Positions 3,924 to 32,723 of a DNA stretch of 32,723 nucleotides are shown piece after piece (position 1 is the stretch's first letter; each line of letters opens with the position of its first letter). The stretch is taken from NCBI RefSeq assembly GCF_000185305.1, contig NZ_GL622200.1:1769295-1802017 (forward strand), read 5' to 3'. The notes beneath the pieces were generated by a model that was given only the letters and a program-made list of their open reading frames with translations, did no database searches and was not told where the DNA came from. This DNA is from Aggregatibacter segnis ATCC 33393 (lineage in GTDB: Bacteria; Pseudomonadota; Gammaproteobacteria; Enterobacterales; Pasteurellaceae). A program made the translations under genes and the position numbers.

Positions 3924-4063
3924 ATTCTCTTTCATCCAGACTTTAACTGTCGGCTTTGGAATTACACCAAATCTGCTGACTTTGCCTATAAAGGCAAACG
4001 CTCGTGGGCTTTATGTCTAAACATATTTACCACCGGTAGGGAATTTCGCCCTGCCCTGAGAAT
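3924..4063 (-). promoter_or_regulatory. FMN riboswitch (RFN element) in the ribB leader
   Basis: Read on the minus strand, the region contains the conserved RFN blocks: GCGAAATTCCCTACCGG, GCCCACGAGCG, AGATTTGGTGTAATTCC, AAAGCCGACAGTTAAAGTC and TGGATGAAAGAGAA. The closing stem pairs ATTCTC (4058-4063 complement) with GAGAAT (3924-3929 complement). FMN binding lowers ribB expression. Between the aptamer and the ribB start, 3812-3923 holds no clear T-rich terminator, so control at translation is more likely than attenuation; that is inference. Confidence 0.95.
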
Positions 4064-4071
4064 GCGGGCAC

Positions 4072-4100
4072 AGTATAGCGCAAAGCAAATGAAGAAAAAA
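4072..4100 (-). promoter_or_regulatory. Probable ribB promoter
   Basis: On the minus strand a -10 of TATACT (4072-4077) would start transcription near 4065, almost exactly at the first base of the FMN riboswitch closing stem (4063). The -35 region is only a T-rich stretch (about 4095-4100). The fit to the riboswitch start is the main support. Confidence 0.5.
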
Positions 4101-4151
4101 TGTTTTTATTTAGAGCTGATTTGCATACAATAGCGCAAATCATTCACCAAA

Positions 4152-5574
<1,423 letters not shown>

Positions 5575-5586
5575 ATTAGAGAGACT

Positions 5587-6273
5587 ATGATTTTATTTGC
5601 AGGCGATCCCCATGGCAGTTTTGACCACCTTTATCCGTTCATCAAAGAACATAAGGATGTGGCATTGGTCATTCTTGGCGATTTACAACTCACCACCCCG
5701 GAACCGTTGGAGAAACTGGCGCAATATGCGGATCTTTGGTTTATTCACGGCAACCATGACAGTAAAACCGTTGCTGCCTTTGAATCCCTTTGGGGAACAG
5801 AATGGCATACGCGCAGCCTACATGGTCGGGTACAAGAAATTCAAGGGAAACGCATCGCAGGACTTGGCGGCGTGTTTCGTGGGCAAATCTGGATGCCACC
5901 AAACAAACCGCTTTTCTTTGACCCAATTCATTATTGCCAATATTGTCCACAAGAAAAAATCTGGCGCGGCGGTGTGCCGTTACGTCACCGCACCTCGATT
6001 TTCCCTTCAGATATTGAAGTGTTAGAGCAACAACAAGCCGACATATTGATTTGTCATGAAGCACCAAAACCGCATCCATCAGGTTTTGCCATCATCAATC
6101 AACTGGCTGAAAAAATGGGCGTCACACAAATTTATCACGGCCATCACCACGAAAATTTTCAATATACAACACCGGCACAACAAGGTTATCAAATTATCAA
6201 CGTAGGATTTCGCAGCTTATGTGATATACAAGGAAACTACCTTCATATCGGCGTTGATGACCGAAATTTATAA
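5587..6273 (+). CDS. Calcineurin-like metallophosphoesterase
   Basis: The 228-residue cytoplasmic protein carries the metal-binding motifs of the calcineurin-like phosphoesterase fold in order: GDPHG (6-10), LGD (30-32), GNHD (55-58), a CHEAP motif near residue 160 and HGHHHE near residue 186. All expected metal ligands are present, so it should be active. The substrate cannot be read from sequence. It begins 12 bp after nadR and is probably co-transcribed with it. That could hint at nucleotide or cofactor phosphate metabolism, but this is only association. Confidence 0.8.
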   Translation: MILFAGDPHGSFDHLYPFIKEHKDVALVILGDLQLTTPEPLEKLAQYADLWFIHGNHDSKTVAAFESLWGTEWHTRSLHGRVQEIQGKRIAGLGGVFRGQIWMPPNKPLFFDPIHYCQYCPQEKIWRGGVPLRHRTSIFPSDIEVLEQQQADILICHEAPKPHPSGFAIINQLAEKMGVTQIYHGHHHENFQYTTPAQQGYQIINVGFRSLCDIQGNYLHIGVDDRNL

Positions 6274-6384
6274 TTTTGGCAAAAATCCCCCAAAATCTGA
6301 CCGCACTTTGCATAAAAGCTATTTATTTATAGGTCGTATAGGGTTATTTTATGTTACCTACTCGTTTACTTTTTAGGATTTTTT

Positions 6385-7608
6385 ATGTTGTTAAAAAATA
6401 AAACCTTAGGCAGTGCCTTAATTATCGCAGGAACCTCTATTGGCGCCGGCATGTTAGCCATGCCATTAACCTCTGCCGGCATTGGCTTCGGCTTTACTGC
6501 CGCCTTGTTGTTCGGGCTTTGGTTACTTCTCGCTTACAGCGGATTGTTGTTTGTAGAAGTGTATCAAACCGCACAACGTAAAGATGACGGTGTCGCCACC
6601 TTAGCAGAAAAATACTTCGGCATGCCAGGGCGCGTCATTTCTACGGTCTCTTTGTTTGTTCTCCTTTACGCCTTATCGGCTGCCTATATGACCGGCGGTG
6701 GTTCATTATTAGCTAACGTGTTACCGGCAGATTTATTCGGTTCAAATGACAACACGCTAAAAATCTCGATTCTTGCTTTCACTGTGCTTCTTGGTGCCTT
6801 CGTGGTTATTGGTACTAGCGGCGTTGATGGCATTACCCGTTTACTCTTTTCCGGTAAAATCATCATCTTCATTCTTGTATTAGCCATGATGTTGCCACGC
6901 ATCAGCCTTGAAAACCTCATGGAAAAACCATTGGATTATGCATTGATTTTATCCGCCGCCCCGATTTTCTTTACCTCTTTCGGTTTCCACGTGGTCATGG
7001 GCAGCATCAATAGCTACTTAGATGGCGATGTAAAACGTTTTAAAAACGCCATTATTATCGGCACATCCATTCCATTAGTTGCCTACTTATTATGGCAGCT
7101 CGCGACTCACGGCATTTTAAGCCAACGTGAATTTGTTGCCGTGTTAAAAGACAACCCAACGCTCACCGGCTTAATCAACGCCACTAAAGCCCTTACCGGC
7201 AGTTTGAGTAATGTATTAAGCGTCTTTTACTCTCTTGCCTTAATCACCTCTTTCTTGGGCGTGGCATTAGGTTTATTTGAAGGACTCAACGATTTATTCA
7301 AACGTGCCAAAATGCCGGCAAACAGAATCAGCTTAACCATCACCACCTTTATTCCGCCGTTGCTGTTCGCCCTGTTCTATCCAAATGGGTTCTTGGCAGC
7401 TCTAGGTTATGCCGGTTTATTGTGTGCTTTCTACTGTCTCATTTTACCTATCGGATTAGCATGGCGCACAAGAAAACACTATAAAAATTTACCTTATCGT
7501 GTTGCCGGTGGAAACATCACGTTGGTCGTTGCTTTGCTTATTGGAATTTTAATTATTGTCATCCCATTCCTAATTCAAGCAGGCCTCCTACCGCAAGTTA
7601 TCGGCTAA
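6385..7608 (+). CDS. tyrP: Aromatic amino acid permease, TyrP-like
   Basis: This 407-residue, roughly eleven-helix inner-membrane protein belongs to the hydroxy/aromatic amino acid permease (HAAAP) family. The N-terminus LGSALIIAGTSIGAGMLAMP matches the substrate-binding first helix of E. coli TyrP. It probably imports tyrosine by proton symport; tryptophan is possible, since TyrP, TnaB and Mtr are close relatives. Start ATG at 6385 follows AGGATTTTTT. It has its own 111-bp upstream region with a USS (6300-6309) and ends at a strong USS-hairpin terminator. Confidence 0.85.
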   Translation: MLLKNKTLGSALIIAGTSIGAGMLAMPLTSAGIGFGFTAALLFGLWLLLAYSGLLFVEVYQTAQRKDDGVATLAEKYFGMPGRVISTVSLFVLLYALSAAYMTGGGSLLANVLPADLFGSNDNTLKISILAFTVLLGAFVVIGTSGVDGITRLLFSGKIIIFILVLAMMLPRISLENLMEKPLDYALILSAAPIFFTSFGFHVVMGSINSYLDGDVKRFKNAIIIGTSIPLVAYLLWQLATHGILSQREFVAVLKDNPTLTGLINATKALTGSLSNVLSVFYSLALITSFLGVALGLFEGLNDLFKRAKMPANRISLTITTFIPPLLFALFYPNGFLAALGYAGLLCAFYCLILPIGLAWRTRKHYKNLPYRVAGGNITLVVALLIGILIIVIPFLIQAGLLPQVIG

Positions 7609-22989: not shown

Positions 22990-23034
22990 TACAAATTTGT
23001 ATTTAGTGATAATTTTTAAAGGTTCGCTTATACT
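22990..23034 (+). promoter_or_regulatory. Operator-promoter copy 1, upstream of cas10
   Basis: The palindrome TACAAATTTGTA (22990-23001) is followed, 33 bp after its centre, by TATACT (23029-23034) as -10. No good -35 is present 16-18 bp upstream of the -10 (GTGATA there). Transcription would start near 23041, giving a leader of about 24 nt with GGAG at 23056-23059. The same layout occurs at 29857 and 32649. Confidence 0.75.
23002..23024 (+). repeat. Left copy of a 20-nt inverted repeat flanking the type III locus
   Basis: TTTAGTGATAATT followed by TTT and AAAGGTT lies between the palindrome and -10 of the cas10 promoter. The inverted copy at 32672-32691 has the same 20 bases without the extra TTT. 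See the finding for possible meaning. Confidence 0.7.
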
Positions 23035-23064
23035 TCACTTAATATTTCGATACATGGAGTAATT

Positions 23065-25269
23065 ATGTCAGATCATACAATTTCTCTCGCTTTTTCAGTA
23101 TTGCACCATTATTTAAAGCTATTCGCTGAAAAACAAGAACCTCATTTGCCTCTTCCCTCTTTTCCGTCCCAATTCAAACAGGTTGATATATCTCCTTTCT
23201 TATCACAAGCTGAACACCTTGTTTTAGGTAAACAACCTGAATTAAAAGAAAGCAATAAACTGTTTAGTTTGTTTGAAAATATCAATCAAGAAAATAAAAA
23301 AACACAATTTTCTTATGATTTTCAACCACTTTCGCCGAATACTATTTTCCCGAAAAAAGAAGAAAACAACACCGCACTTTCAACACATTGGGATAAGTTT
23401 GTTCAAGCGATCGCAAAGATTCCTAAATCTCATTGTGATAACCCAAGTTTATGGCTAGATCATTTTGATACCGCAATGCAATGCTTCACTTGCAATTTGC
23501 CAAGTCCTTATAGTGATGACATTTCTTTCTATGATTTCACTAAAGCAGTCGCAGCGTTTGTGGTCGCACTCGCAGATCAAGAAATCAATAAAGAAGAGCC
23601 ATTTTTATTGATTCAAGGCGACTTTTTCGGCATTCAAGATTTTATTTTTTCCGGAGGCAGTGCTTCCAACAAAGGCGCTGCAAAAATCTTACGCGGGCGT
23701 TCTTTCCAAGTGTCTCTTTTCACCGAATTAGCCGCACTAAAAGTACTAAACGCCTGTCAACTGCCAACCACTTCTCAAATGATGAATGCCGCAGGGAAAT
23801 TTTTAATTGTTGCCCCAAACACCAAGGCAGTAAAAGAGGCAATCAAACAAGTTCAAGCGGAACTAAATCAATGGTTTATTAAAGAAACCTACGGATTAAT
23901 CGGGCTGGGTATCGCAGTTCAATCGGCAAAATACAGTGATTTTGAACAAAATCACTACGAAACATTAGTTAAAAAATTATTTGAGAATTTAGAAGAACAA
24001 AAACTCAAGCGGTTAGATTTAACGGATACCACGCAAAGCGTGCAAGAAGTTGAATATCCAAATGGTGTTTGTGAAATGAATAGCTTTTTCCCATCTCAAA
24101 AAGAAGAAGATTGTCCTACAATCGATGGTAAAAAAGTTAACTACTCTGTTATCTCTGAAGATCAAATTAATATTGGTAAATGGCTATCTAAAAAAGACAG
24201 AATTATCATTACAGATAATGAAAGTAAAATTCATAGCGATAGTGATACTAAAATTCTGAAATTACCAATTTTTGGTTTTAATGTAATTTTTACCGAAGAG
24301 GAAGAAGAAACCGGAAAATTCGGTTTGCATGTACATAAGATTCATCGCTTTTGGGATTTCTCATTACCAAAAAATACAAACAGTACCATTTGGAATGGAT
24401 ATGCCCGCCGTTATATCAACGCCTATGTTCCTTTTGATGATGAAGGAAAGATTGTTACTTTTGAGGATATTCAAGCTAGAGATGAAGGACAAAAAGCATT
24501 AATGACCTTAAAAGGTGATGTGGATAATCTTGGTACGATTTTCCAAAAAGGCATTCAGCCTGCCAACATCGCAAAAATGGCGGCGCTATCTCGCCAAATG
24601 AACCAATTTTTTAGTCTTTGGTTGCCGGCCTATTGCTCGGAACAAAGCCAAAATATGTACACCGTGTTTGCGGGGGGCGATGATTTCTTCTTAATCGGTC
24701 CTTGGTATTCTACACAAAAAGTGGCGCATGCAATGCAACAAGCCTTTGCACATTATGTGGCAGAAAATCCAGAAATTCATTTTTCAGTGGGAATGGTCAT
24801 GAGCAAATCCAATATTCCAGTGCCACGTTTAGGCGATTTAGCGGAAGAGGCATTGGAGAAAGCGAAAGGTATTGATAAAGGCAAAACTGTTTCTACAGCG
24901 GAAGGTAAAAATGCCGTGACAATTTTTAATCGGTCGGTGAAGTGGGCGGATTGGAAACAACTTTGTGGTTTAGAGGAAGAAATTCACCGCTTGGCAGACA
25001 CTTATAAAATTTCGACTTCTTATCTTTATTCATTAATTCGTTTATGTGAACAAGCCGCAAATACAGAAAATATTGAAAGCACCATGTGGCGCAGTCGTTT
25101 TTATTATAAAACAGTCCGATATGTGCTTGATAAAATAAAAAGAGAAGAAGATCGAAAAGATGCTTTAAAAGTACTTTCTGAAACATTAGGGAAAAATGGA
25201 ATTGAATTATATAAAATTAATTTTTCTATTCCATTATTTAACTACTTTTATAAAAAACGCAATATTTAG
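23065..25269 (+). CDS. cas10: Type III-A Cas10/Csm1, GGDD present, HD domain not recognisable
   Basis: This 734-residue large subunit of the Csm complex makes cyclic oligoadenylates when the complex binds target RNA. First palm domain: FLLIQGDFFGIQDFIFSGG near residue 183. Second palm: GDVDN (484-488) and the cyclase motif GGDD (537-540). The segment DDISFYDFTKAVAAF near 150 matches the usual linker before palm 1. The N-terminus, where Csm1 normally has an HD nuclease, shows only LHHYLKLF and no HD-type metal motif. Two cysteines (near 333 and 347) remain of the usual zinc-binding set. ATG 23065 has GGAG upstream. It carries a USS at 23371-23380. Confidence 0.95.
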   Translation: MSDHTISLAFSVLHHYLKLFAEKQEPHLPLPSFPSQFKQVDISPFLSQAEHLVLGKQPELKESNKLFSLFENINQENKKTQFSYDFQPLSPNTIFPKKEENNTALSTHWDKFVQAIAKIPKSHCDNPSLWLDHFDTAMQCFTCNLPSPYSDDISFYDFTKAVAAFVVALADQEINKEEPFLLIQGDFFGIQDFIFSGGSASNKGAAKILRGRSFQVSLFTELAALKVLNACQLPTTSQMMNAAGKFLIVAPNTKAVKEAIKQVQAELNQWFIKETYGLIGLGIAVQSAKYSDFEQNHYETLVKKLFENLEEQKLKRLDLTDTTQSVQEVEYPNGVCEMNSFFPSQKEEDCPTIDGKKVNYSVISEDQINIGKWLSKKDRIIITDNESKIHSDSDTKILKLPIFGFNVIFTEEEEETGKFGLHVHKIHRFWDFSLPKNTNSTIWNGYARRYINAYVPFDDEGKIVTFEDIQARDEGQKALMTLKGDVDNLGTIFQKGIQPANIAKMAALSRQMNQFFSLWLPAYCSEQSQNMYTVFAGGDDFFLIGPWYSTQKVAHAMQQAFAHYVAENPEIHFSVGMVMSKSNIPVPRLGDLAEEALEKAKGIDKGKTVSTAEGKNAVTIFNRSVKWADWKQLCGLEEEIHRLADTYKISTSYLYSLIRLCEQAANTENIESTMWRSRFYYKTVRYVLDKIKREEDRKDALKVLSETLGKNGIELYKINFSIPLFNYFYKKRNI

Positions 25270-25277
25270 GAGAAATT

Positions 25278-25661
25278 ATGGATCTTTCTAAAATTAAATT
25301 TCCAGCAGAAGCCGGCTCAGGTATTTTTGATTCTGTAGCAGAAAATGCAGCAAAAGAAATCAGAGATAGTAAAGTTAACAAAAAAACACAGATTAGAAAA
25401 TTCTATGATGAATTAATTATGTGGAATGAACGTGTTCAGCACTCTAAAATTTCAAAAGAAGAAAAATATATAGAATTAGAACCATTTATCAAAATGTTAA
25501 AAGCAAAAGTTACCTATGCAAAAGGGAGAGGACATATTGATGAAAAATTTCAAAGTATTTTCAATCATTGTATAGACCAAATTAAAGATGCCAAAACATT
25601 ACAACACGCAAAATTATTTATGGAAGCTGTAACAGGTTATTCTAGAGAATTAGAAAAATAA
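25278..25661 (+). CDS. csm2: Type III-A small subunit Csm2
   Basis: The 127-residue helical protein is the small subunit that lines the Csm complex opposite the Csm3 backbone. The pattern RKFYDELIMWNERV, FIKMLKAKVTYAKGRG and CIDQIKDAKTLQHAKLFMEA matches the Csm2 family, and the length is normal. AGGAG precedes the ATG, 8 bp after the cas10 stop. Confidence 0.9.
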   Translation: MDLSKIKFPAEAGSGIFDSVAENAAKEIRDSKVNKKTQIRKFYDELIMWNERVQHSKISKEEKYIELEPFIKMLKAKVTYAKGRGHIDEKFQSIFNHCIDQIKDAKTLQHAKLFMEAVTGYSRELEK

Positions 25662-25671
25662 GGGGTTGAAT

Positions 25672-26376
25672 ATGAAACTTAATAAAATTATTGAAATTAA
25701 AGCAAAACTAGTTTTACAAACTGGATTACATATAGGTAGTGGAAATAGTGAAATGCAAATTGGCGGAATTGACAGTCAAGTTGTAAGAAACCCTATTACT
25801 CGAGAGCCATATATTCCTGGTTCAAGTTTAAAAGGGAAAATCAGAACTTTGTTAGAATGGCTCTCAGGAGAGGTAAAAAATGAACCGTTAAGTTTAGGAA
25901 ACATAAAAGATATACATAACAAAGAAACGGTAAAAGATATTTTGCGTTTATTTGGATTTGCAGGTCATTCAGAAAATAATAAGGAGCTATGCGTAGAATT
26001 AAAAGCATCTCGTCTTTCTTTTTGGGACTGTTCTCTAAGTAAAAAATGGAAAAATGAATATAGTGAAGATGGCTTTATTATTACGGAAACGAAAAGTGAA
26101 AATACAATAGACCGAATCACATCGGTTACTACAGGTGGTGGTGTGCGCCAAACCGAACGTGTGCCAGCTGGTGCAGAATTTGATTTCAAATTGATGTTAC
26201 GCCAATTTGAAGGCGATAAACCGGAACTTCTCGATTTAGTGTTAAAAGGCTTAAAACTGTTAGAACTTGACAGTCTTGGCGGCTCCGGTTCTCGTGGTTA
26301 CGGTAAAGTGAAATTTACTGAATTAACGGTTGATGGCGAAGCTCGTAATTTAGACGACATTAAACCTTTCGAATAA
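25672..26376 (+). CDS. csm3: Type III-A backbone RAMP and RNase Csm3
   Basis: The 234-residue RAMP forms the helical backbone and cuts bound target RNA at 6-nt steps. TGLHIGSGNSEMQIGGIDSQ (17-36) includes the catalytic aspartate (D34), and PYIPGSSLKGKIRTLLEW and the glycine-rich LGGSGSRGYGKVKF follow. Target RNA cleavage should therefore be intact. I start at ATG 25672 with AAGGGG upstream; the TTG at 25666 overlaps that ribosome site. Confidence 0.95.
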   Translation: MKLNKIIEIKAKLVLQTGLHIGSGNSEMQIGGIDSQVVRNPITREPYIPGSSLKGKIRTLLEWLSGEVKNEPLSLGNIKDIHNKETVKDILRLFGFAGHSENNKELCVELKASRLSFWDCSLSKKWKNEYSEDGFIITETKSENTIDRITSVTTGGGVRQTERVPAGAEFDFKLMLRQFEGDKPELLDLVLKGLKLLELDSLGGSGSRGYGKVKFTELTVDGEARNLDDIKPFE

Positions 26377-26385
26377 GGTGATTTT

Positions 26386-27324
26386 ATGAAGTTATATCGT
26401 TTTACACTCACACCACAAAGTGCGATGGGAACGCCTTTGGTGGGCGATACCTTATTTGGTCAGCTTTGTTGGGCAGTGAGAAATCGTTTTGGTGAAGCAC
26501 GCTTAAGTGAATTACTTAAAGGTTATACCACACAACGCCCATTTATGGTGGTATCGGATGCTTTTCCAGAAAGTTTTTTGCCTTTACCGACTTTGCCATC
26601 AACGTTTTGGGAAACCAAAACAGAAACCGATCGCAAAAGCTTAAAAAAAGCCCAATGGGTCAAAATCACCGATACAGAAAAAAGCGCGGTGAAATTTTGG
26701 CAAGAATGTGCTTTACAAGCGAATTTTCAATTCAAAAAAGAAACTCAAGATCAGTTTCACAACACTATTGATCGCCAAACAAATACCACGGGTGATGGAC
26801 AATTTGCGCCTTATTCCACAGAACTAACCTGGTTTGGCGCACAACAAAAATTCGAGCTCTATGTTGTGTTAGATGAAAATCGCTTTTCATTGGAAGCGTT
26901 ACAAATAGTACTTCAAGATGTCGGAAATATTGGTTTTGGACGTGATGCCTCTATCGGGCTAGGCAAATTCCGTTGTGAAAATCCACAAGCCTTCGATTTT
27001 GCTCAACCGAATGCAAATTGCTATTTAACGCTAGCCAATTGTGCCCCGCAAGGTTTAGGTTTAAACAAGGAGTATTGCTACTACCAAATTACGACAAGAT
27101 TTGGTCGCCACGGTGACATTCAAGCGTTAAGCTCCAACCCATTTAAAAAGCCGATTATTTTGGCAAAACCAGCAGCCATTTTTACACCTGAAAACTATCA
27201 ACCCCGTTTATTTTTAGGTAATGGATTAGGCAATGTGTCTTATGCTCAACCAGAAGCCGTGCATCAAAGCTATGCTCCCGTCTTAAATTTATTTGTCGAT
27301 TTTGAACATAAGGATCACAAATGA
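26386..27324 (+). CDS. csm4: Type III-A RAMP Csm4
   Basis: The 312-residue Cas5-like RAMP caps the complex at the crRNA 5' handle and contacts Cas10. GTPLVGDTLFGQLCWAVRNRFG near residue 15 and DVGNIGFGRDASIGLGKF near residue 184, a glycine-rich RAMP loop, identify Csm4. It ends in a 4-base ATGA overlap with csm5. Confidence 0.93.
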   Translation: MKLYRFTLTPQSAMGTPLVGDTLFGQLCWAVRNRFGEARLSELLKGYTTQRPFMVVSDAFPESFLPLPTLPSTFWETKTETDRKSLKKAQWVKITDTEKSAVKFWQECALQANFQFKKETQDQFHNTIDRQTNTTGDGQFAPYSTELTWFGAQQKFELYVVLDENRFSLEALQIVLQDVGNIGFGRDASIGLGKFRCENPQAFDFAQPNANCYLTLANCAPQGLGLNKEYCYYQITTRFGRHGDIQALSSNPFKKPIILAKPAAIFTPENYQPRLFLGNGLGNVSYAQPEAVHQSYAPVLNLFVDFEHKDHK

Positions 27325-28949
27325 AACCATTTATACAAATCCACAACGTTTATTTAACCCCATTAAGCCCAATACATATTGGCTGCGGGGAAGATTTTGA
27401 GCCGACGAATTATGTCATTGATAATGAAACTTTATTTAATTTTGAACCTAGCCATTTAATGTTAAATGAGAGGGAGAGAACGAATTTGTTAAATGCAGTA
27501 AATAAAGATATTCTCGCTATTCATAATTTTTTCTCTAGTAACAAGAGTAAAATTATCCCCTTATCTCAGTATTTTAGTGCTATAACTAAAGGATTTGTAT
27601 CTGAGTATAATAAAAATATAGAGAACCCTGCTCACAAAGAGAAAAATGGAAATAAAGTTTTCAATCAACTACAAATTGAAAGAACTGCATATCTACCTTA
27701 CCAAGGTTTGGCATTTATTCCAGGAAGCAGTTTTAAAGGTGCTTTTACTACTCCAGTGTTATCAAAAAGACATATTGACAATGGCGGCAATCCTCTGATT
27801 AAACGAGAAAAGAAAACGTCTAAAACAGCGTTAAGTCTTATATCACAAAAAATAAATGAAGATTATCTATATAATATAAATAATCTTAAGAGCTTCGATG
27901 AAGTAAAAGAGAATTTTGCACATAATGAATTTAGAAGTATAAAATTCAGTGATTTTTCTCCTCTAAATAATGTACAAACCAAGATCTTTTACTGCTTAAA
28001 TTTTAATCGTGAACTAAAAAATGGGGAGAAAACATTTAATACAAAAATTGTACAGAGAAGAGAGAGCATCCTACCAGGTCAATATAGAGCATTTTCAGCT
28101 AATTTAAGCATATTAGATGATAAAGTTAATAAATTACTTTCATTGAATGAATACTTAACTATAAATGATTCATACTATAAAAAAATATTCATTGAAGAAA
28201 TGGAAGACCTAGTTGCTAAAGGTTTTGTTTCTCAAAATTATCTCAATGGTATATTAAATATAATTAATAAAGCTGGATTTTTAATTAGATTAGGTAAAAA
28301 TGGATCAGATAGTAAAGTTCTTAAAGGAAAAAATGTCGCCCAAATAGAGATTAAGCCTAAGAAAAATCAAGAGGTTTATTATCAAGACAAAGCTACAACT
28401 TATTGGCTTTCTGCGGACTCAAAAACACAAAAGAATAATCTTCTTCCCTTCGGTTGGGCATTAATTGAAGTTGATCCCACTACGGAAAATGAAGCCTTAA
28501 AAACGTGGTGTGAAGCTCAACCAAAATCAAAATTTGATCGTTCTGAAATTTTGGCGAAACGCGAAGCTCAAAAAGCGGAACAAGCACGCTTGCAAGCAGA
28601 AGCTGAAGCAAAACGCTTAGCGGAACAACAAGCAGAAAAAGAAAAGCTAGCATTGTTAGATTCGCTTTCGGACAATCAACGTTTAGTAGAAGCCAAGTTG
28701 GTTGAATGGAATTCTCAGGAAAGAAAACCATTTACGGTTTCACCTATTTTTAGTGAAGCCAAAAAATTGTTGGAAGATGCTCAACAATGGAATAAAGAAG
28801 ATCGTCATTATCTTTATGAAAAACTTGATCCAACAAAATCAAATGAAGGGTTACAAAAATATGTTGATGGCTTAAGTGGTTTCAGCAATTTAAAAGCAAA
28901 ATCAGCCGTAGAATTTAAAAAATTGCGTAACAAACTGGTGGCAGAATGA
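27321..28949 (+). CDS. csm5: Type III-A RAMP Csm5 with long helical C-terminal extension
   Basis: The 542-residue protein starts as a typical Csm5 (VYLTPLSPIHIGCGEDFEPTNY near residue 9; LAFIPGSSFKGAFTTPVL near residue 131). Csm5 caps the crRNA 3' end and recruits trimming nucleases. After the RAMP part ends (FGWALIEVD near residue 380), residues 407-449 form a charged Ala/Glu/Lys/Arg-rich coiled-coil-like helix (KREAQKAEQARLQAEAEAKR), followed by about 90 more residues. Most Csm5 proteins are about 340-400 residues. The middle of the gene is notably AT-rich. It overlaps csm4 and cas6 by ATGA. Confidence 0.92.
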   Translation: MKPFIQIHNVYLTPLSPIHIGCGEDFEPTNYVIDNETLFNFEPSHLMLNERERTNLLNAVNKDILAIHNFFSSNKSKIIPLSQYFSAITKGFVSEYNKNIENPAHKEKNGNKVFNQLQIERTAYLPYQGLAFIPGSSFKGAFTTPVLSKRHIDNGGNPLIKREKKTSKTALSLISQKINEDYLYNINNLKSFDEVKENFAHNEFRSIKFSDFSPLNNVQTKIFYCLNFNRELKNGEKTFNTKIVQRRESILPGQYRAFSANLSILDDKVNKLLSLNEYLTINDSYYKKIFIEEMEDLVAKGFVSQNYLNGILNIINKAGFLIRLGKNGSDSKVLKGKNVAQIEIKPKKNQEVYYQDKATTYWLSADSKTQKNNLLPFGWALIEVDPTTENEALKTWCEAQPKSKFDRSEILAKREAQKAEQARLQAEAEAKRLAEQQAEKEKLALLDSLSDNQRLVEAKLVEWNSQERKPFTVSPIFSEAKKLLEDAQQWNKEDRHYLYEKLDPTKSNEGLQKYVDGLSGFSNLKAKSAVEFKKLRNKLVAE

Positions 28950-29869
28950 TTCCAAATTCTTTCCCCATAGCCCGCTATCAATTTGATTTTGTTGTGAGCG
29001 AGCCGATTTTATTACCGGAATATTCAGGCTCCACCTTGCGTGGAGCCTTTGGTCGTGCTTTGCGGAAAATTTCCTGCATGACAAAACAAGAGGATTGCAA
29101 AGGTTGCCCACTTTATCGCACCTGCCCTTACACCAACATTTTTGAAACGCCCGCACCGACAGAGCATGAATTACAAAAGTTCAGTCAAGTGCCGAACGGC
29201 TATATTATTGAACCGCCAGCATGGGGAGAGCGACTTTATGCCGAAGGTGAAACATTAACATTTTCGCTTGTGCTATTTGGACGGTTGATTGAACAGCTCC
29301 CCCTCATTGCTTTTGCTTTCAAACGGGCTTTTGAATATAACGTCGGGCGGGGAAAGGCAAATTTACTTGATATAGCAAAAGTTGAGTCAAATTTAACCAC
29401 CCGACAATCCATTTTACAAAACGGAAATATCATCGAACATCAAAAAACAATCGAAATTCCGACCGCACTTGATAGCGTGGCACAAATCAAAATTGATACG
29501 CCTTTAAGGCTGCAAGAAAATGGCAAGCCTTTGCGAGTAAATGAGATTACGGCAGAACGATTTTTTATTTCTTTAGCCAAGCGCCTTTCCTTATTAAGCG
29601 AATTTCATTCTGAACCCTTGAATCTAGATTTTGGATTGCTAAAAAACCAAATCGAACAAATTCAAGATAATAAACATTTAAAATGGCAAGATTGGACGCG
29701 CTATTCCTCCCGCCAAGATCATAAAATGAAATTAGGAGGCGTCATCGGTCTGTGGCAATTCAACAATTTATCCCCTGAATTAGCCAAATTACTTTACATC
29801 GGGCAATGGCTACATTGTGGGAAAAATGCCACTTTTGGATTAGGCAAATATCGGATTACAAATTTGTAA
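28946..29869 (+). CDS. cas6: Cas6-family pre-crRNA endoribonuclease
   Basis: The 307-residue protein looks like the RAMP-type Cas6 of the PF10040 family. EPILLPEYSGSTLRGAFGRALRK lies near the N-terminus, and a four-cysteine cluster (C44, C51, C54, C60; CKGCPLYRTCPY) may bind metal. The C-terminal glycine loop GKNATFGLGKY (292-302) contacts RNA in RAMPs, and H290 precedes it. It should cut the CRISPR transcript to give crRNAs for the Csm complex. The start overlaps csm5 (ATGA). Its stop codon lies inside the 16-bp palindrome of copy 2. Confidence 0.88.
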   Translation: MIPNSFPIARYQFDFVVSEPILLPEYSGSTLRGAFGRALRKISCMTKQEDCKGCPLYRTCPYTNIFETPAPTEHELQKFSQVPNGYIIEPPAWGERLYAEGETLTFSLVLFGRLIEQLPLIAFAFKRAFEYNVGRGKANLLDIAKVESNLTTRQSILQNGNIIEHQKTIEIPTALDSVAQIKIDTPLRLQENGKPLRVNEITAERFFISLAKRLSLLSEFHSEPLNLDFGLLKNQIEQIQDNKHLKWQDWTRYSSRQDHKMKLGGVIGLWQFNNLSPELAKLLYIGQWLHCGKNATFGLGKYRITNL

Positions 29870-29901
29870 TTTCCAATCAGAAATAAACTACTTGTTAAAA
29901 T
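29855..29901 (+). promoter_or_regulatory. Operator-promoter copy 2, upstream of csx16
   Basis: ATTACAAATTTGTAAT (29855-29870) is a perfect 16-bp palindrome containing the shared 12-mer. TAAAAT (29896-29901) starts 33 bp after the centre. No good -35 exists. Transcription would start near 29908 with GGAG at 29920-29923 and csx16 ATG at 29930. The operator overlaps the cas6 stop codon (29867-29869). Confidence 0.75.
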
Positions 29902-29929
29902 ATGGTTTTAATTATTTAAGGAGAATGAT

Positions 29930-30220
29930 ATGACAACATGGTTTATTTCAAGACACCCCGGCGCGATTGAGTGGGTGAAGCAGCAAAACATTCAGATTAA
30001 TCGATTTGAAAGCCATTTAGATACATCACTGGTGCAAGCCAACGATGTAGTGATTGGCACGCTTCCGATTCATTTAGCAGCAGAAGTGTGCCAAAAAGGG
30101 GCAAAATTTTATTTTCTTTCTATTAATGTGACACCTGAACAACGTGGTATAGAATTAACTTGCAAACAATTAACTGAGCAACAATGCTCAATTCAACCAT
30201 TTAGAATTGAAAAATTATAG
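29930..30220 (+). CDS. csx16: Csx16 (VVA1548-family CRISPR accessory protein)
   Basis: This 96-residue protein belongs to the Csx16/VVA1548 family. TTWFISRHPGAIEWVKQQ at the start and NDVVIGTLPIHLAAEVCQKG and FLSINVTPEQRG are the family pattern. Csx16 occurs with type III loci and has been proposed to bind or degrade cyclic oligoadenylate, acting as a ring nuclease. That role is family knowledge, not visible in this sequence. AAGGAG precedes the ATG. It opens the second operon; the Card1-like gene follows after 8 bp. Confidence 0.88.
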   Translation: MTTWFISRHPGAIEWVKQQNIQINRFESHLDTSLVQANDVVIGTLPIHLAAEVCQKGAKFYFLSINVTPEQRGIELTCKQLTEQQCSIQPFRIEKL

Positions 30221-30228
30221 GCGTTTTT

Positions 30229-31371
30229 ATGCAAAAATATGATATTCATGTGTGTTTAGTGTCAGATCAAGCCGCACCAAACTTATTACCTATTTTGGAT
30301 AGTGAATTTAAACCTCAAAAAGCTGTTTTTGTTGTTTCTACAAAAGATGAAATTAAAGAAAAGGCAAATTCTCTTAAACTAGCATTTAAGCAAAACGACA
30401 TTGACGTAGATATTTTAGAGCTTTCTAATGAATTTGATTTCCAAAGTATGGAAACTGAACTATTTGATTTGTTATCAAGCTATGAAAATGAAAACATTGC
30501 ATTGAATGTAACTGGCGGAACAAAATTAATGGCAATCGCTGCTCAAAATGTTTTCTCTGGTGTTAAGCCTATTTTTTATATAAATACAAATAAAGAAGAA
30601 ATTATTTTTATTTCTAAAGAAAATGATAAACATATACCTGTACAAAAGTTAAACACCAAAACCTTAATTAATACTTATCTTTCAAGTTATGGAGTCAGTG
30701 TATTAAAAAACAAAGATGATTTTAACTTCTATAAACTAGGTGTATTTACCGAACGCTTTGTAAGAAGACAAGAAGATTATAAAGATATTATTTCAAAATT
30801 GAATTTATTAGCTTTTAATGCTTCTAATAGCAAACTAGAAACAAATTTCACAAACTACAGTAATGATCTTAAATTAATTCTGGAAGATCTTGCAGATGAA
30901 GATCTAGTAAGATTGAATGGTGATATCGTAGATTTTAAGAATGAACAGACAAGAAGCTTTTTGAATGGAAACTGGTTGGAATATTTTACTTATAAACAAG
31001 CTAACAGCATTGCAGATGTTATTGATGCTGATTGGAATGTAGAAGTAGTAAATTCAAAATATGAGAAAAACAAAGTTGGTGTGAATAATGAATTAGACGT
31101 TATCTTTATGGCAAAAAATAAGTGTCATATCATTGAGTGTAAAACGATAAATTTTGAAAATACAGAAAATAAGGATAAATTACAGAGCTATTTAGATAAA
31201 TTAAATTCCTTAAAAGGCTATGGCGGTTCATTAACAAAAGTTTGTTTAGTGAGTTTCTATGCAATACCCCAAAATATAAAACGTCGGGCAGAAAAAGATA
31301 ATATTGAGATCATTGATGATTATCGTATTAAAAATTTAAAAGAAAGAATTCAAAGCTGGATTAAAAAATAA
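30229..31371 (+). CDS. Card1/Can2-like CARF nuclease (DUF1887)
   Basis: The 380-residue protein has an N-terminal CARF domain with the ligand loop NVTGGTKLMAIAA (93-105) and a C-terminal PD-(D/E)xK nuclease: E251 (NGNWLEY), D290 (NNELDVIF) and E303-x-K305 (HIIECKT). This is the architecture of Card1 and Can2, which, when cyclic tetra-adenylate binds, cut single-stranded DNA and RNA or nick DNA. The active-site residues are intact. It probably supplies the DNase function that Cas10 lacks here. The ribosome site is weak (GCGTTTTTATG), so it may be translated at a low level. The stop overlaps the next gene as TAATG. Confidence 0.9.
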   Translation: MQKYDIHVCLVSDQAAPNLLPILDSEFKPQKAVFVVSTKDEIKEKANSLKLAFKQNDIDVDILELSNEFDFQSMETELFDLLSSYENENIALNVTGGTKLMAIAAQNVFSGVKPIFYINTNKEEIIFISKENDKHIPVQKLNTKTLINTYLSSYGVSVLKNKDDFNFYKLGVFTERFVRRQEDYKDIISKLNLLAFNASNSKLETNFTNYSNDLKLILEDLADEDLVRLNGDIVDFKNEQTRSFLNGNWLEYFTYKQANSIADVIDADWNVEVVNSKYEKNKVGVNNELDVIFMAKNKCHIIECKTINFENTENKDKLQSYLDKLNSLKGYGGSLTKVCLVSFYAIPQNIKRRAEKDNIEIIDDYRIKNLKERIQSWIKK

Positions 31372-32525
31372 TGAAAACCTACAACAAACGCATTTTACTC
31401 TCTGTCACAGGAAAGTCCCCTGCAGTTGTCACCGAAACACTTTATGCTTTAGTAACAGAAAAAAACTTTATTCCAACGGAAATTCAAGTAATTACAACAA
31501 TTGAAGGAAGAAATGAATTACTTTCCGCATTACTTGGCATTGAGGGCAAACGAAAAGGAGCTTTGCAAGAGTTTATTGAAGATTATGGCAGCCAATATGG
31601 TTTTGATCATATTCATTTTAATGAAGACTGCGTACATATTATTAAAGATACGAACGGTGAACAATTACCGGATATTCGCACACCAAAAGAAAACGAACAG
31701 GCCGCAAATAGCATTGTGCAGTTAGTCGGTAAATTGTGCCAAGATGACGAAACTCAACTACACGTTTCTATTGCTGGTGGGCGGAAAACCATGGGCTTTT
31801 TTATGGGTTATGCGCTGTCACTCTATGGGCGTGAACAGGATAGTCTTTCTCATGTTTTAGTGGATGAAGAATTTGAAACGTTGTCAAATTTCTATTATCG
31901 CAAACCTAAAGAATATCGTATCGTGAATGACCGAAATGGCAAGGAGCTAGACGCATCACAAGCTAATATTATGTTAGCCGAAATCCCTTGGGTTCGTTTA
32001 GGTTTAGGTGTGCCTGAAGATCTCAAACAACAAGCTATTTCTTATAGTGATTCGGTAAAAAATGCACAGGCATTGTTAGAAGCACCTTCGCTCACATTTC
32101 TTTCACCCATAGAAGATTGCCTTGTTACATTCGGTTCAAAAACAATCAAACTTGCACCAAGAGGCTATGCCTTGTTCTTAAGTCTTGTTATTGCGAAAAA
32201 GCAAGGCTGGAACGTTGGAACGGGGAATCGTGAAGAAGCTCGAACCATAGCGACTTATTTGAACATTTACAGCCAAATGAAAAATGACGTTGAAATGGAG
32301 AATCGCTTGAAAGGTGCTAACAACGATTTAAAAAATGTTTTATCGGAATCTCGTACCGATATTAATAAAAAAGTGATGGCAAGTTTTTCTTTAGGAAAGG
32401 GTGCAAAGAGTGCTTATATTCCATCTTCTAACCGTAAAACAGGCAATTATGAACTCAATATTCACTTAGATAATATTGATGTATCGAAAATAGAATCCGA
32501 TCTTAAACGACTAAAACTTATCTAA
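31371..32525 (+). CDS. NE0113-family CARF protein with winged-helix-like C-terminus
   Basis: The 384-residue protein starts with a CARF domain: RILLSVTGKSPAVVTETLYAL (7-27) and VSIAGGRKTMGFFMGYALSLY (132-152). This is the TIGR02584/NE0113 family, sometimes annotated as Csm6-type ring nuclease. I find no HEPN motif (R-x4-6-H), so RNase activity like true Csm6 is not supported. Residues about 245-372 look like an OmpR/PhoB-type winged helix: IKLAPRGYALFLSLVIAKKQG, then NRLKGANNDLKNVL as possible recognition helix, then a hairpin ending GNYELNI. It could degrade cyclic oligoadenylate, act as a signal-responsive regulator, or both. It overlaps the Card1-like gene by one base. Confidence 0.8.
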   Translation: MKTYNKRILLSVTGKSPAVVTETLYALVTEKNFIPTEIQVITTIEGRNELLSALLGIEGKRKGALQEFIEDYGSQYGFDHIHFNEDCVHIIKDTNGEQLPDIRTPKENEQAANSIVQLVGKLCQDDETQLHVSIAGGRKTMGFFMGYALSLYGREQDSLSHVLVDEEFETLSNFYYRKPKEYRIVNDRNGKELDASQANIMLAEIPWVRLGLGVPEDLKQQAISYSDSVKNAQALLEAPSLTFLSPIEDCLVTFGSKTIKLAPRGYALFLSLVIAKKQGWNVGTGNREEARTIATYLNIYSQMKNDVEMENRLKGANNDLKNVLSESRTDINKKVMASFSLGKGAKSAYIPSSNRKTGNYELNIHLDNIDVSKIESDLKRLKLI

Positions 32526-32529
32526 AATC

Positions 32530-32555
32530 AACCGCCCTTGTGGCGGTTTTCTTTT
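32530..32555 (+). terminator. Rho-independent terminator of the csx16 operon
   Basis: AACCGCC (32530-32536) and GGCGGTT (32542-32548) form a 7-bp stem with a five-base loop followed by TTTTCTTTT, five bases after the last stop codon. The last 198 bp of the window hold this terminator, an AT-rich stretch without repeats of CRISPR type, and operator-promoter copy 3. Confidence 0.9.
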
Positions 32556-32648
32556 CTAGAAATTTAAATTTCACTCCCCCACCCTTTTTCTTCAGCATGC
32601 TGTTTTCATAAAAAATAATGTGATGTTGAAAACCAAAAACTTTAAACA

Positions 32649-32693
32649 TACAAATTTGTAAAATCCTCAACAACCTTTAATTATCACTAAACT
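32649..32693 (+). promoter_or_regulatory. Operator-promoter copy 3, for a gene starting beyond the window
   Basis: TACAAATTTGTA (32649-32660) with TAAACT (32688-32693) beginning 33 bp after its centre, no good -35, and GGAG at 32713-32716. The window ends at 32723, seven bases after GGAG, so a start codon is expected at about 32724. The gene itself is not visible; it could be cas1, another accessory gene or a regulator. Confidence 0.7.
32672..32691 (-). repeat. Right copy of the 20-nt inverted repeat flanking the locus
   Basis: AACCTTTAATTATCACTAAA is the reverse complement of the element at 23002-23024, apart from three extra T in the left copy. It overlaps the -10 of copy 3. Confidence 0.7.
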
Positions 32694-32723
32694 AATACCA
32701 TCGAATTACACAGGAGAAACATC

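What the first reader, a model, noticed from the sequence alone, without database searches (positions are those of the whole stretch)
22990..32723. One palindrome plus -10 module repeated three times at exactly the same spacing in the type III locus
TACAAATTTGTA occurs at 22990, 29857 and 32649, and I found it nowhere else in the window. In all three, a hexamer of form TA-A-T (TATACT, TAAAAT, TAAACT) starts exactly 33 bp after the palindrome centre, putting the centre at about -45.5 from the expected start. GGAG lies 63-66 bp from the palindrome start and the ATG follows at 73-75 bp. All lack a good -35. A rough composition estimate (60% AT) gives well under 0.1 chance copies of this 12-mer in the window. 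Fixed spacing to a promoter without -35 suggests a dedicated activator; a repressor is also possible. This would coordinate the Csm core, the signalling cassette and a further gene as one regulon.
Basis: seen in the sequence. Interest (0 to 1): 0.88.

Follow-up and report, generated by a model that had tools for sequence, protein, structure and literature searches.

The report
CRISPR immunity's own promoter switch
A short mirror-image DNA word sits at one fixed distance from the start of the gene blocks of a bacterial RNA-targeting immune system, and comparison across many bacteria suggests that a sensor protein of that same immune system reads it to switch the system on.

Summary
TACAAATTTGTA occurs three times in the 2.01-Mb genome, all in this type III-A CRISPR locus, each with a -10 hexamer 39 bp after its first base. 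Three near-copies just beyond the window have the same geometry, two of them leading into unknown genes followed by cas2-cas1-cas2. Of 13 intact Csm loci in the family, 12 carry the motif; 46 of 58 sites have TANNNT at exactly +39, without a -35 signal. A scan of 74 non-family Csm1 loci recovered GCAAGCTTGC at the same spacing; in 17 of 50 such sites an ATG follows the -10 by 6-7 nt. The best candidate regulator lies in the window: the NE0113-family CARF protein (31371-32525). Its C-terminus resembles OmpR/PhoB winged helices. Among 30 well-flanked non-family loci it is in 14 of 14 with the motif, and 0 of 8 loci lacking it have the motif. Most likely it is a cyclic-oligoadenylate-sensing activator of the whole locus, itself included. 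DNA binding, ligand and sign are inferred. NE0113 as a regulator was predicted in 2014; my searches found no report of the site.

The parts
22990..23001 (+). palindrome TACAAATTTGTA, csm1 promoter
23029..23034 (+). -10 hexamer TATACT (+39 from palindrome start)
23056..23059 (+). GGAG ribosome-binding site of csm1
23065..25269 (+). csm1/cas10
   Evidence: TIGR02578, E 9.3e-176
25278..25661 (+). csm2
25666..26376 (+). csm3
   Evidence: TIGR02582
26386..27324 (+). csm4
   Evidence: TIGR01903
27321..28949 (+). csm5
   Evidence: PADLOC Csm5, E 2.3e-21; NCBIfam Csm5 below its cut-off
28946..29869 (+). cas6
   Evidence: PF10040, PADLOC Cas6
29857..29868 (+). palindrome TACAAATTTGTA, csx16 promoter, inside the 3' end of cas6
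29896..29901 (+). -10 hexamer TAAAAT (+39)
29920..29923 (+). GGAG ribosome-binding site of csx16
29930..30220 (+). csx16 (VVA1548 family, a cA4 ring nuclease family)
   Evidence: TIGR02620; activity of the family from passages of PMC12409355
30229..31371 (+). card1/can2-like CARF nuclease
   Evidence: PF23400 and PF09002
31371..32072 (+). NE0113-family protein, CARF part (candidate sensor)
   Evidence: TIGR02584, E 3.5e-69
32073..32525 (+). NE0113-family protein, C-terminal part resembling an OmpR/PhoB winged helix (candidate DNA-binding domain)
32649..32660 (+). palindrome TACAAATTTGTA, promoter of the next gene (beyond the window)
32688..32693 (+). -10 hexamer TAAACT (+39)
32713..32716 (+). 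GGAG ribosome-binding site

Best explanation
The palindrome is the operator of a type III-A-specific activator, centred at about -45.5 of promoters that have a -10 but no -35. It governs the csm1-cas6 unit, the csx16-card1-NE0113 unit, the next gene(s), and the unit(s) leading to cas2-cas1-cas2; the CRISPR array leaders do not carry it. The activator is most likely the NE0113-family protein of the locus: a CARF domain that senses cyclic oligoadenylate made by Csm1/Cas10 upon target recognition (probably cA4, because Card1 and the cA4 ring nuclease Csx16 share its operon), fused to an OmpR-type winged helix. A CARF dimer would present two winged helices to the palindrome and help RNA polymerase use the weak promoter. 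Since NE0113 lies in a unit with this operator, the circuit would be self-amplifying, and Csx16 would switch it off by degrading the ligand. Shown: motif, geometry, conservation, co-occurrence, winged-helix resemblance by profile. Inferred: binding of this DNA by NE0113, activation rather than repression, ligand dependence, operon limits.
For: Genome-wide the exact word is only in the locus. 46 of 58 sites in 13 family loci have TANNNT at exactly +39; background rate 0.022 per position. 12 of 13 intact Csm loci have it. NE0113 is found in 11 of 140 family genomes, and all 11 belong to the 12 motif-bearing loci; the one intact Csm locus without the motif, G112, also lacks NE0113. De novo palindrome scan over 74 non-family loci: 4 loci at offset 33, 1 at 34, 1 at 47, none at the other offsets from 14 to 59 (in L153 and L156 the two sites point opposite ways). 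50 CAAGCTTG sites in 33 of 74 loci with the -10 at 32-34, offsets preset. In the 41 non-family loci with NE0113, 25 have a site (at most 1 mismatch) at offset 32-34, against 1-7 at eight other offset windows. Well-flanked non-family loci (30 of 74): NE0113 in 14/14 motif+ and 8/16 motif-, one-sided p 0.0022, the strongest of the 12 families tested there. In 17 of 50 sites an ATG of an open frame lies 6-7 nt after the -10, i.e. at the expected start. Further NE0113 genomes: 3 of 5 have exact-consensus sites at offset 32-34, 0.02 expected; in one 5.1-Mb genome the single GGCAAGCTTGCC is 39 bp before a -10 of a Cas2-like gene. NE0113 C-terminus: 25 of 29 PDB hits are by name response-regulator-type DNA-binding proteins, best E 0.0048; HHalign 86% against OmpR-type domains, at most 0.75% against 25 other families. 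2014 prediction that NE0113 regulates transcription (PMC4012209, passages).
Against: G032 has two motif sites but no NE0113. 16 of 41 NE0113-bearing non-family loci show no site within one mismatch, and 5 of 33 loci without a detected NE0113 do (many contigs are short). G371 has no site and G434 only near-matches. GGCAAGCTTGCC is absent from 4 of 7 NE0113 genomes, where the palindrome, if present, differs. When family and non-family loci are pooled (87 loci, with a loose rule that also counts G112 as motif+), Cas2 (p 2.3e-6) and Cas1 (3.4e-6) clusters associate with the motif more strongly than NE0113 (2.2e-5); over the 74 non-family loci they are significant but weaker. Loci share ancestry, so association is not causation. 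In G038 the NE0113 frame looks disrupted near its end. Winged-helix E-values are modest, the best local matches cover only the first third of the domain, and no structure was obtained. The conserved core CAA-NN-TTG is short for two winged helices side by side. NCBI names TIGR02584 a ring nuclease, so it may do something else.
Confidence: 0.67

Rival explanations
1. A different activator, encoded elsewhere on the chromosome or another Cas protein such as a Cas2, binds the palindrome; NE0113 is only a fellow traveller.
For: G032 keeps the motif without NE0113. NE0113 association is confounded by locus ancestry. Cas1 and Cas2 clusters associate more strongly than NE0113 in the pooled 87 loci, and Cas1, Cas2 and Csx16 also associate in the 74 non-family loci.
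Against: Of the 12 families tested, only Csm1-5 and NE0113 are in all 14 well-flanked motif+ non-family loci; Cas1 is in 9 and the Cas2s in 10 and 9. Outside type III loci the exact word is at chance level: 42 of 75 copies in 140 genomes lie elsewhere, against 60 copies of the reversed control (my hand sums), so a host factor would need a regulon made almost only of this locus in many lineages. Similarity of the NE0113 C-terminus predicts the motif (AUC 0.91, N-terminus 0.84, ancestry not corrected).
Confidence: 0.2
2. The palindrome is a repressor operator (NE0113 or another protein), released on infection.
For: Regulators of defence loci are often repressors (general knowledge); the site (-51 to -40) lies within the footprint of RNA polymerase (recalled).
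Against: Promoters have no -35 signal, so they should be weak without help; the spacing is nearly invariant (46 of 58 at one offset), which a repressor does not need.
Confidence: 0.13
3. Not regulatory: conservation by recent descent of one mobile locus, coding constraint in cas6, or AT-rich chance.
For: One site overlaps cas6 codons; loci share ancestry.
Against: Csm1 identities to the window copy are only 53-69% in the 11 relatives aligned while palindrome and spacing stay fixed; sites stand before different genes with unrelated spacers between palindrome and -10; a GC-rich version with the same offset occurs in non-family loci.
Confidence: 0.03

Closest known systems
Csa3 (archaeal CARF-wHTH transcription factors)
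   Same: CARF sensor fused to a winged helix, encoded in a CRISPR locus, regulating CRISPR genes; cA4 recognition reported (abstract beginning of PMC8699464 in the listing; passages of review PMC9704534).
   Different: Csa3 is often found with type I-A systems (PMC9704534); here it is bacterial type III-A, an OmpR/PhoB-like winged helix, one fixed -45.5 operator before several units, and the regulator inside its own regulon.
NE0113 family (PF09623 / TIGR02584)
   Same: The candidate regulator is a member; the family was predicted in 2014 to regulate transcription directly (PMC4012209, passages).
   Different: No target site, regulon or promoter geometry found for it in the searches made.
CARF protein MM_0565 of Methanosarcina mazei
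   Same: By title, a CARF protein that affects transcription of a cas1-type gene (PMC7465815, seen in the listing only).
   Different: Archaeal, casposon-linked; not read further.
OmpR/PhoB-type DNA-binding domains (KdpE, PmrA)
   Same: Sequence-profile resemblance of the C-terminal domain.
   Different: No receiver domain; a CARF sensor instead. OmpR-type proteins usually bind direct repeats (recalled), here the site is palindromic.
Class II-type activator-dependent promoters
   Same: Activator site just upstream of the -35 position, poor -35, fixed spacing to the -10.
   Different: Centre at about -45.5 rather than the -41.5 typical of CRP (recalled).

Membership tests
NE0113 / PF09623 / TIGR02584 | profile score above the curated cut-off | tested here: met
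   153.8 bits vs 23; 233 vs 80.65
NE0113 / PF09623 / TIGR02584 | no C-terminal catalytic effector domain | tested here: met
   Pfam finds only Cas_NE0113 in the window protein, residues 16-233; the rest resembles a winged helix
CARF-wHTH transcription regulator (works like Csa3) | CARF domain | tested here: met
   PADLOC CARF5 models, E 4.1e-127 and 4.8e-113; the better one is labelled CARF_TM, a membrane form, which I did not test
CARF-wHTH transcription regulator (works like Csa3) | winged helix next to CARF | tested here: met
   profile evidence only, modest E-values, no structure
CARF-wHTH transcription regulator (works like Csa3) | sequence-specific binding to CRISPR promoters | not testable with these tools
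   co-occurrence only
CARF-wHTH transcription regulator (works like Csa3) | binds cyclic oligoadenylate | not testable with these tools
   inferred from the conserved SIAGGRKTMGF stretch and neighbours Card1 and Csx16
Csa3 family proper | sequence membership in Csa3 | tested here: not met
   Pfam Csa3_N only at E 0.16 in 1 of 35 relatives, not in the window protein
Activator-dependent promoter | good -10, poor -35, fixed activator-site spacing | tested here: met
Activator-dependent promoter | transcription start at the predicted place, need for the site | tested here: inconclusive
   17 of 50 non-family sites have an ATG 6-7 nt after the -10; no RNA data

The most novel reading that the evidence does not exclude
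Bacterial type III-A CRISPR systems carry a built-in cOA-to-transcription feed-forward loop: NE0113, a CARF-winged-helix activator, senses the cyclic oligoadenylate made on infection and switches on interference, signalling, adaptation and its own gene through one fixed-geometry operator (TACAAATTTGTA / GGCAAGCTTGCC at -45.5), with Csx16 as the off switch. This regulon is ancient: sites are found in Pasteurellaceae, beta- and gammaproteobacteria and at least one Nitrospira bin.
Probability: 0.45. Interest if true: 0.88.

Novelty: new variant of a known kind. Interest (0 to 1): 0.8.

Why it matters
How bacterial type III CRISPR systems are switched on is little known. A cis-element with fixed geometry, shared by several lineages and linked to a CARF-winged-helix protein, gives a concrete testable answer: infection-made cyclic oligoadenylate may drive transcription of the immune locus itself, spacer acquisition genes included. 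It also assigns a likely function and DNA target to a CARF family that NCBI names a ring nuclease, and the operator can be used to find regulon members (such as the unknown 119- and 284-aa genes) in other genomes.

Tried and rejected
Host-wide regulator with a core site: exact words outside type III loci look like chance (42 elsewhere against 60 for the reversed control in 140 genomes, hand sums). I examined 22 of the loci fetched for scattered hits: 7 have TANNNT at +39 in one orientation; 3 of the 7 precede csm1 relics (G123, supported by a weak Csm1 match; G021 and G053 by eye) and one is the intergenic region of an HxlR-like regulator and an epimerase-like gene (named by eye) with a longer palindrome.

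A regulator gene shared by the family loci: clustering of frames of at least 40 aa gave no gene shared by most loci besides cas, CARF and Csx16 genes, apart from two clusters of short frames (12 and 9 loci) that in this genome lie on the CRISPR arrays. The 119- and 284-aa genes occur in only 4 of the 16 fetched family stretches and have no Pfam, NCBIfam or PADLOC match. The clusters were not annotated, so a regulator family found in a few loci could be missed.

The exact Pasteurellaceae 12-mer outside the family: no TRCAAATTTGYA in 74 loci, nor a 1-mismatch form with the -10 at +39; the related palindrome was found only by the scan.

Literature: TACAAATTTGTA gave 2 irrelevant papers (one passage of PMC11001641 read; the other seen in listing only). 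NE0113 gave 3 papers (passages of PMC4012209 and PMC5438186 read; PMC3045334 seen in listing only). Other searches. The 2020 CARF survey (recalled) is not held (one search tried a guessed id for it).

Rows dropped before counts: one search left out G011, G112 and G113, one G006 site upstream of its locus, one G114 site past 19 kb, sites with under 25 bases upstream, and used the G000 continuation only to 10 kb past the L004 start (one 1-mismatch site beyond was not counted). One search kept the best 80 of 174 relatives. 'full' uses 30 of 74 loci (at least 4 kb before and 9 kb after the csm1 start). One search compared 26 clusters, one of them NE0113 itself, with proteins cut to 300 residues.
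Full report
What was checked. The three copies of TACAAATTTGTA are exactly where reported, and there are no others in the window or in the 2,010,295-base genome (the reversed control word occurs 0 times). In each, a TA...T hexamer starts 39 bases after the first base of the palindrome. With one mismatch allowed the genome count (11) does not exceed the control (15), though two of the extra copies lie in this locus. The third start codon lies outside the window and in a withheld stretch, so it was not seen.

The locus. The window holds csm1-csm5 and cas6, then csx16, a Card1-like CARF nuclease and an NE0113-family CARF protein. Further along the chromosome come two CRISPR arrays, a 119-aa and a 284-aa gene of unknown family, and cas2-cas1-cas2. 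In that continuation are three more sites: TACAAACTTGCA (a diverged duplicate of the third site), TACAAATTTGCA before the 119-aa gene and TGCAAATTTGTA before the 284-aa gene. All three have a -10 at exactly +39 (TAAACT, TATGAT, TATTAT), so 6 of 6 sites of this locus share the geometry. The repeated leader before the two arrays shows no such site in the sequence read.

Relatives in the same family. Of 140 genomes, 13 hold a Csm1 over the curated cut-off. Stretches of 20 kb around it were read. Twelve of 13 loci carry the motif (TRCAAATTTGYA, at most one mismatch); G112 has none near its cas genes. csm1 has a site upstream in 11 of 13 (in G049 about 390 bp before the listed start), and csx16 in all 11 loci where it follows cas6, 10 of them with the site inside the cas6 3' end. 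In 13 loci (12 intact plus the decayed G009) there are 58 sites; TANNNT occurs at +39 in 46, while the next best of 68 offsets has 9. The rate elsewhere in these sequences is 0.022 per position. Spacers between palindrome and -10 are not conserved, and no -35 is detectable (best match 3.07 of 6 against 2.99 shuffled). By my hand sums the exact 12-mer occurs 75 times in the 140 genomes and the reversed control 60 times; 26 of the 75 lie in the 12 intact loci, which are under a thousandth of the DNA. Decayed loci keep it too: G009 has four exact copies, and three further genomes have it before csm1 relics (G021 and G053 judged by eye, G123 with a weak Csm1 match).

Beyond the family. Csm1 relatives were fetched from a named genome collection, the best 80 of 174: 6 are from the family (for example Actinobacillus porcinus, Avibacterium sp. 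21-586, Caviibacterium pharyngocola), 74 are by title mostly beta- and gammaproteobacterial, with some Nitrospira and others. TRCAAATTTGYA is absent from those 74. But a scan with no sequence assumption (perfect 10-base palindromes recurring in a locus with TANNNT at offset k from the centre, either orientation) peaked at k=33: 4 loci, all GCAAGCTTGC, with 1 locus each at k=34 and k=47 and none at other offsets from 14 to 59. The same scan of the window and family stretches gives 8 at 33 and 1 each at 18, 19, 24, 32 and 34. For palindromic CAA-NN-TTG 10-mers in the 41 loci with NE0113, TANNNT occurs 27 times at k=33, 9 at 34, 5 at 32, and 0-4 at any other offset; in the 33 loci without a detected NE0113 the counts are 2, 2 and 1. 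The consensus is GGCAAGCTTGCC; many sites stand before NE0113, csm1 or (by eye) cas2. Among 50 CAAGCTTG sites, 17 have the ATG of an open frame 6 or 7 nt after the -10, the expected +1, which suggests leaderless messages and independently supports the -10 assignment.

Who reads it. NE0113 is found in 11 of 140 family genomes, all 11 motif-bearing. Of the two intact Csm loci without it, G112 has no motif and G032 has two sites, a real exception. Outside the family, with at least 4 kb upstream and 9 kb downstream of the csm1 start (30 of 74 loci), NE0113 is in 14 of 14 motif+ and 8 of 16 motif- loci, and none of the 8 loci without NE0113 has the motif. Over all 74 it is 25 of 30 against 16 of 44 (one-sided p 5.8e-5), the strongest of 12 families; Cas1 (0.0021), Cas2 (0.0041 and 0.0099) and Csx16 (0.010) associate more weakly. 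Against this, when the 13 family loci are pooled in (87 loci, frames clustered, loose rule that counts G112 as motif+ for a distant near-match), Cas2 and Cas1 clusters rank above NE0113 (2.3e-6 and 3.4e-6 against 2.2e-5). I read that as the family loci, which nearly all carry cas1/cas2 within the fetched stretch, adding weight to those genes, but ancestry is not corrected in either analysis.

Further test. The motif rule used above was derived from the same loci, so five further NE0113-bearing genomes were examined: three have exact-consensus sites with the -10 at 32-34 (GACAAGCTTGYC), one (G434) only near-matches, one (G371) none; 0.02 sites were expected from shuffles. GGCAAGCTTGCC itself is in 3 of 7 such genomes: three of four copies in G504 lie on the csm1 contig, the one copy in G371 has no -10 and is on another contig, and the only copy in the 5.1-Mb genome G388 is 39 bp before a TATGCT and a Cas2-like gene (by eye), about 16 kb from csm1.

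Is NE0113 a DNA-binding protein? Its last ~150 residues match no Pfam family. A profile of 34 such regions against the Protein Data Bank gives 29 hits up to E 10, of which 25 are by name response-regulator-type DNA-binding proteins (KdpE, PmrA/BasR, RstA, PhoB and the like; OmpR/PhoB class recalled), best E 0.0048; the match covers the start of that fold. Profile-profile alignment to 21 OmpR-type domains gives 86% locally (31 columns) and 69% globally (90 columns), against at most 0.75% for 25 other families of the loci and 0.2% for the NE0113 N-terminal part. Motif presence follows similarity of this domain (AUC 0.91; N-terminus 0.84; 18 motif+ of 29; ancestry not corrected). In the family the putative recognition helix (by eye) and the operator centre (AT instead of GC) both differ from the rest. 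No structure model was obtained.

Known context. A 2014 survey, read in passages, predicted that CARF families lacking effector domains 'such as Csa3 and NE0113' regulate transcription directly (PMC4012209). A review read in passages names Csa3 as the only experimentally characterised non-nuclease CARF effector as of 2022 (PMC9704534). Csx16 is reported as a cA4-specific ring nuclease (PMC12409355, passages). My searches gave no report of this operator or regulon; most subscription journals and preprints were not covered.

Judgement. That the palindrome with fixed spacing is a real regulatory element of type III-A loci: about 0.95. That NE0113 reads it: about 0.74 (lowered by a point on restating). 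That it activates: about 0.85. That cyclic oligoadenylate controls it: about 0.55.

Noticed in passing
chromosome just beyond the window (L004:3569-3928 and 4017-4871): Two unknown genes (119 and 284 aa) between the arrays and cas2-cas1-cas2, each with its own motif promoter in the window's genome; found in 4 of the 16 fetched family stretches and without Pfam, NCBIfam or PADLOC match.
   Followed up: partly
L004:4887-5171 and 6263-6550: Two Cas2-family genes flank cas1; many fetched family loci repeat this cas2-cas1-cas2 arrangement.
   Followed up: no
L061, L062, L068, L071, L074: Several loci have motif promoters in tandem 84-106 bp apart, so that the first could make a short leader RNA before the second promoter.
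   Followed up: no
29857-29869: The csx16 operator is written into the last codons of cas6 (...ITNL-stop in the window) in 10 of the 11 family loci that have csx16 after cas6 (coordinates).
   Followed up: partly
L112, L114, L117, L127, L153 and others: 17 of 50 non-family operator promoters appear leaderless (ATG 6-7 nt after the -10), several at NE0113 and Cas2-sized frames.
   Followed up: yes
L049:1501 and L056:1501: An HxlR-like regulator and an epimerase-like gene (named by eye) flank a longer palindrome that contains TACAAATTTGTA with a -10 at +39/+40; probably unrelated.
   Followed up: partly
L038:1501 and L039:1501: By eye, TACAAATTTGTA forms the loop of a hairpin (CCCCA...TGGGG or TGGGA) in two same-genus genomes; probably a chance occurrence.
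   Followed up: no
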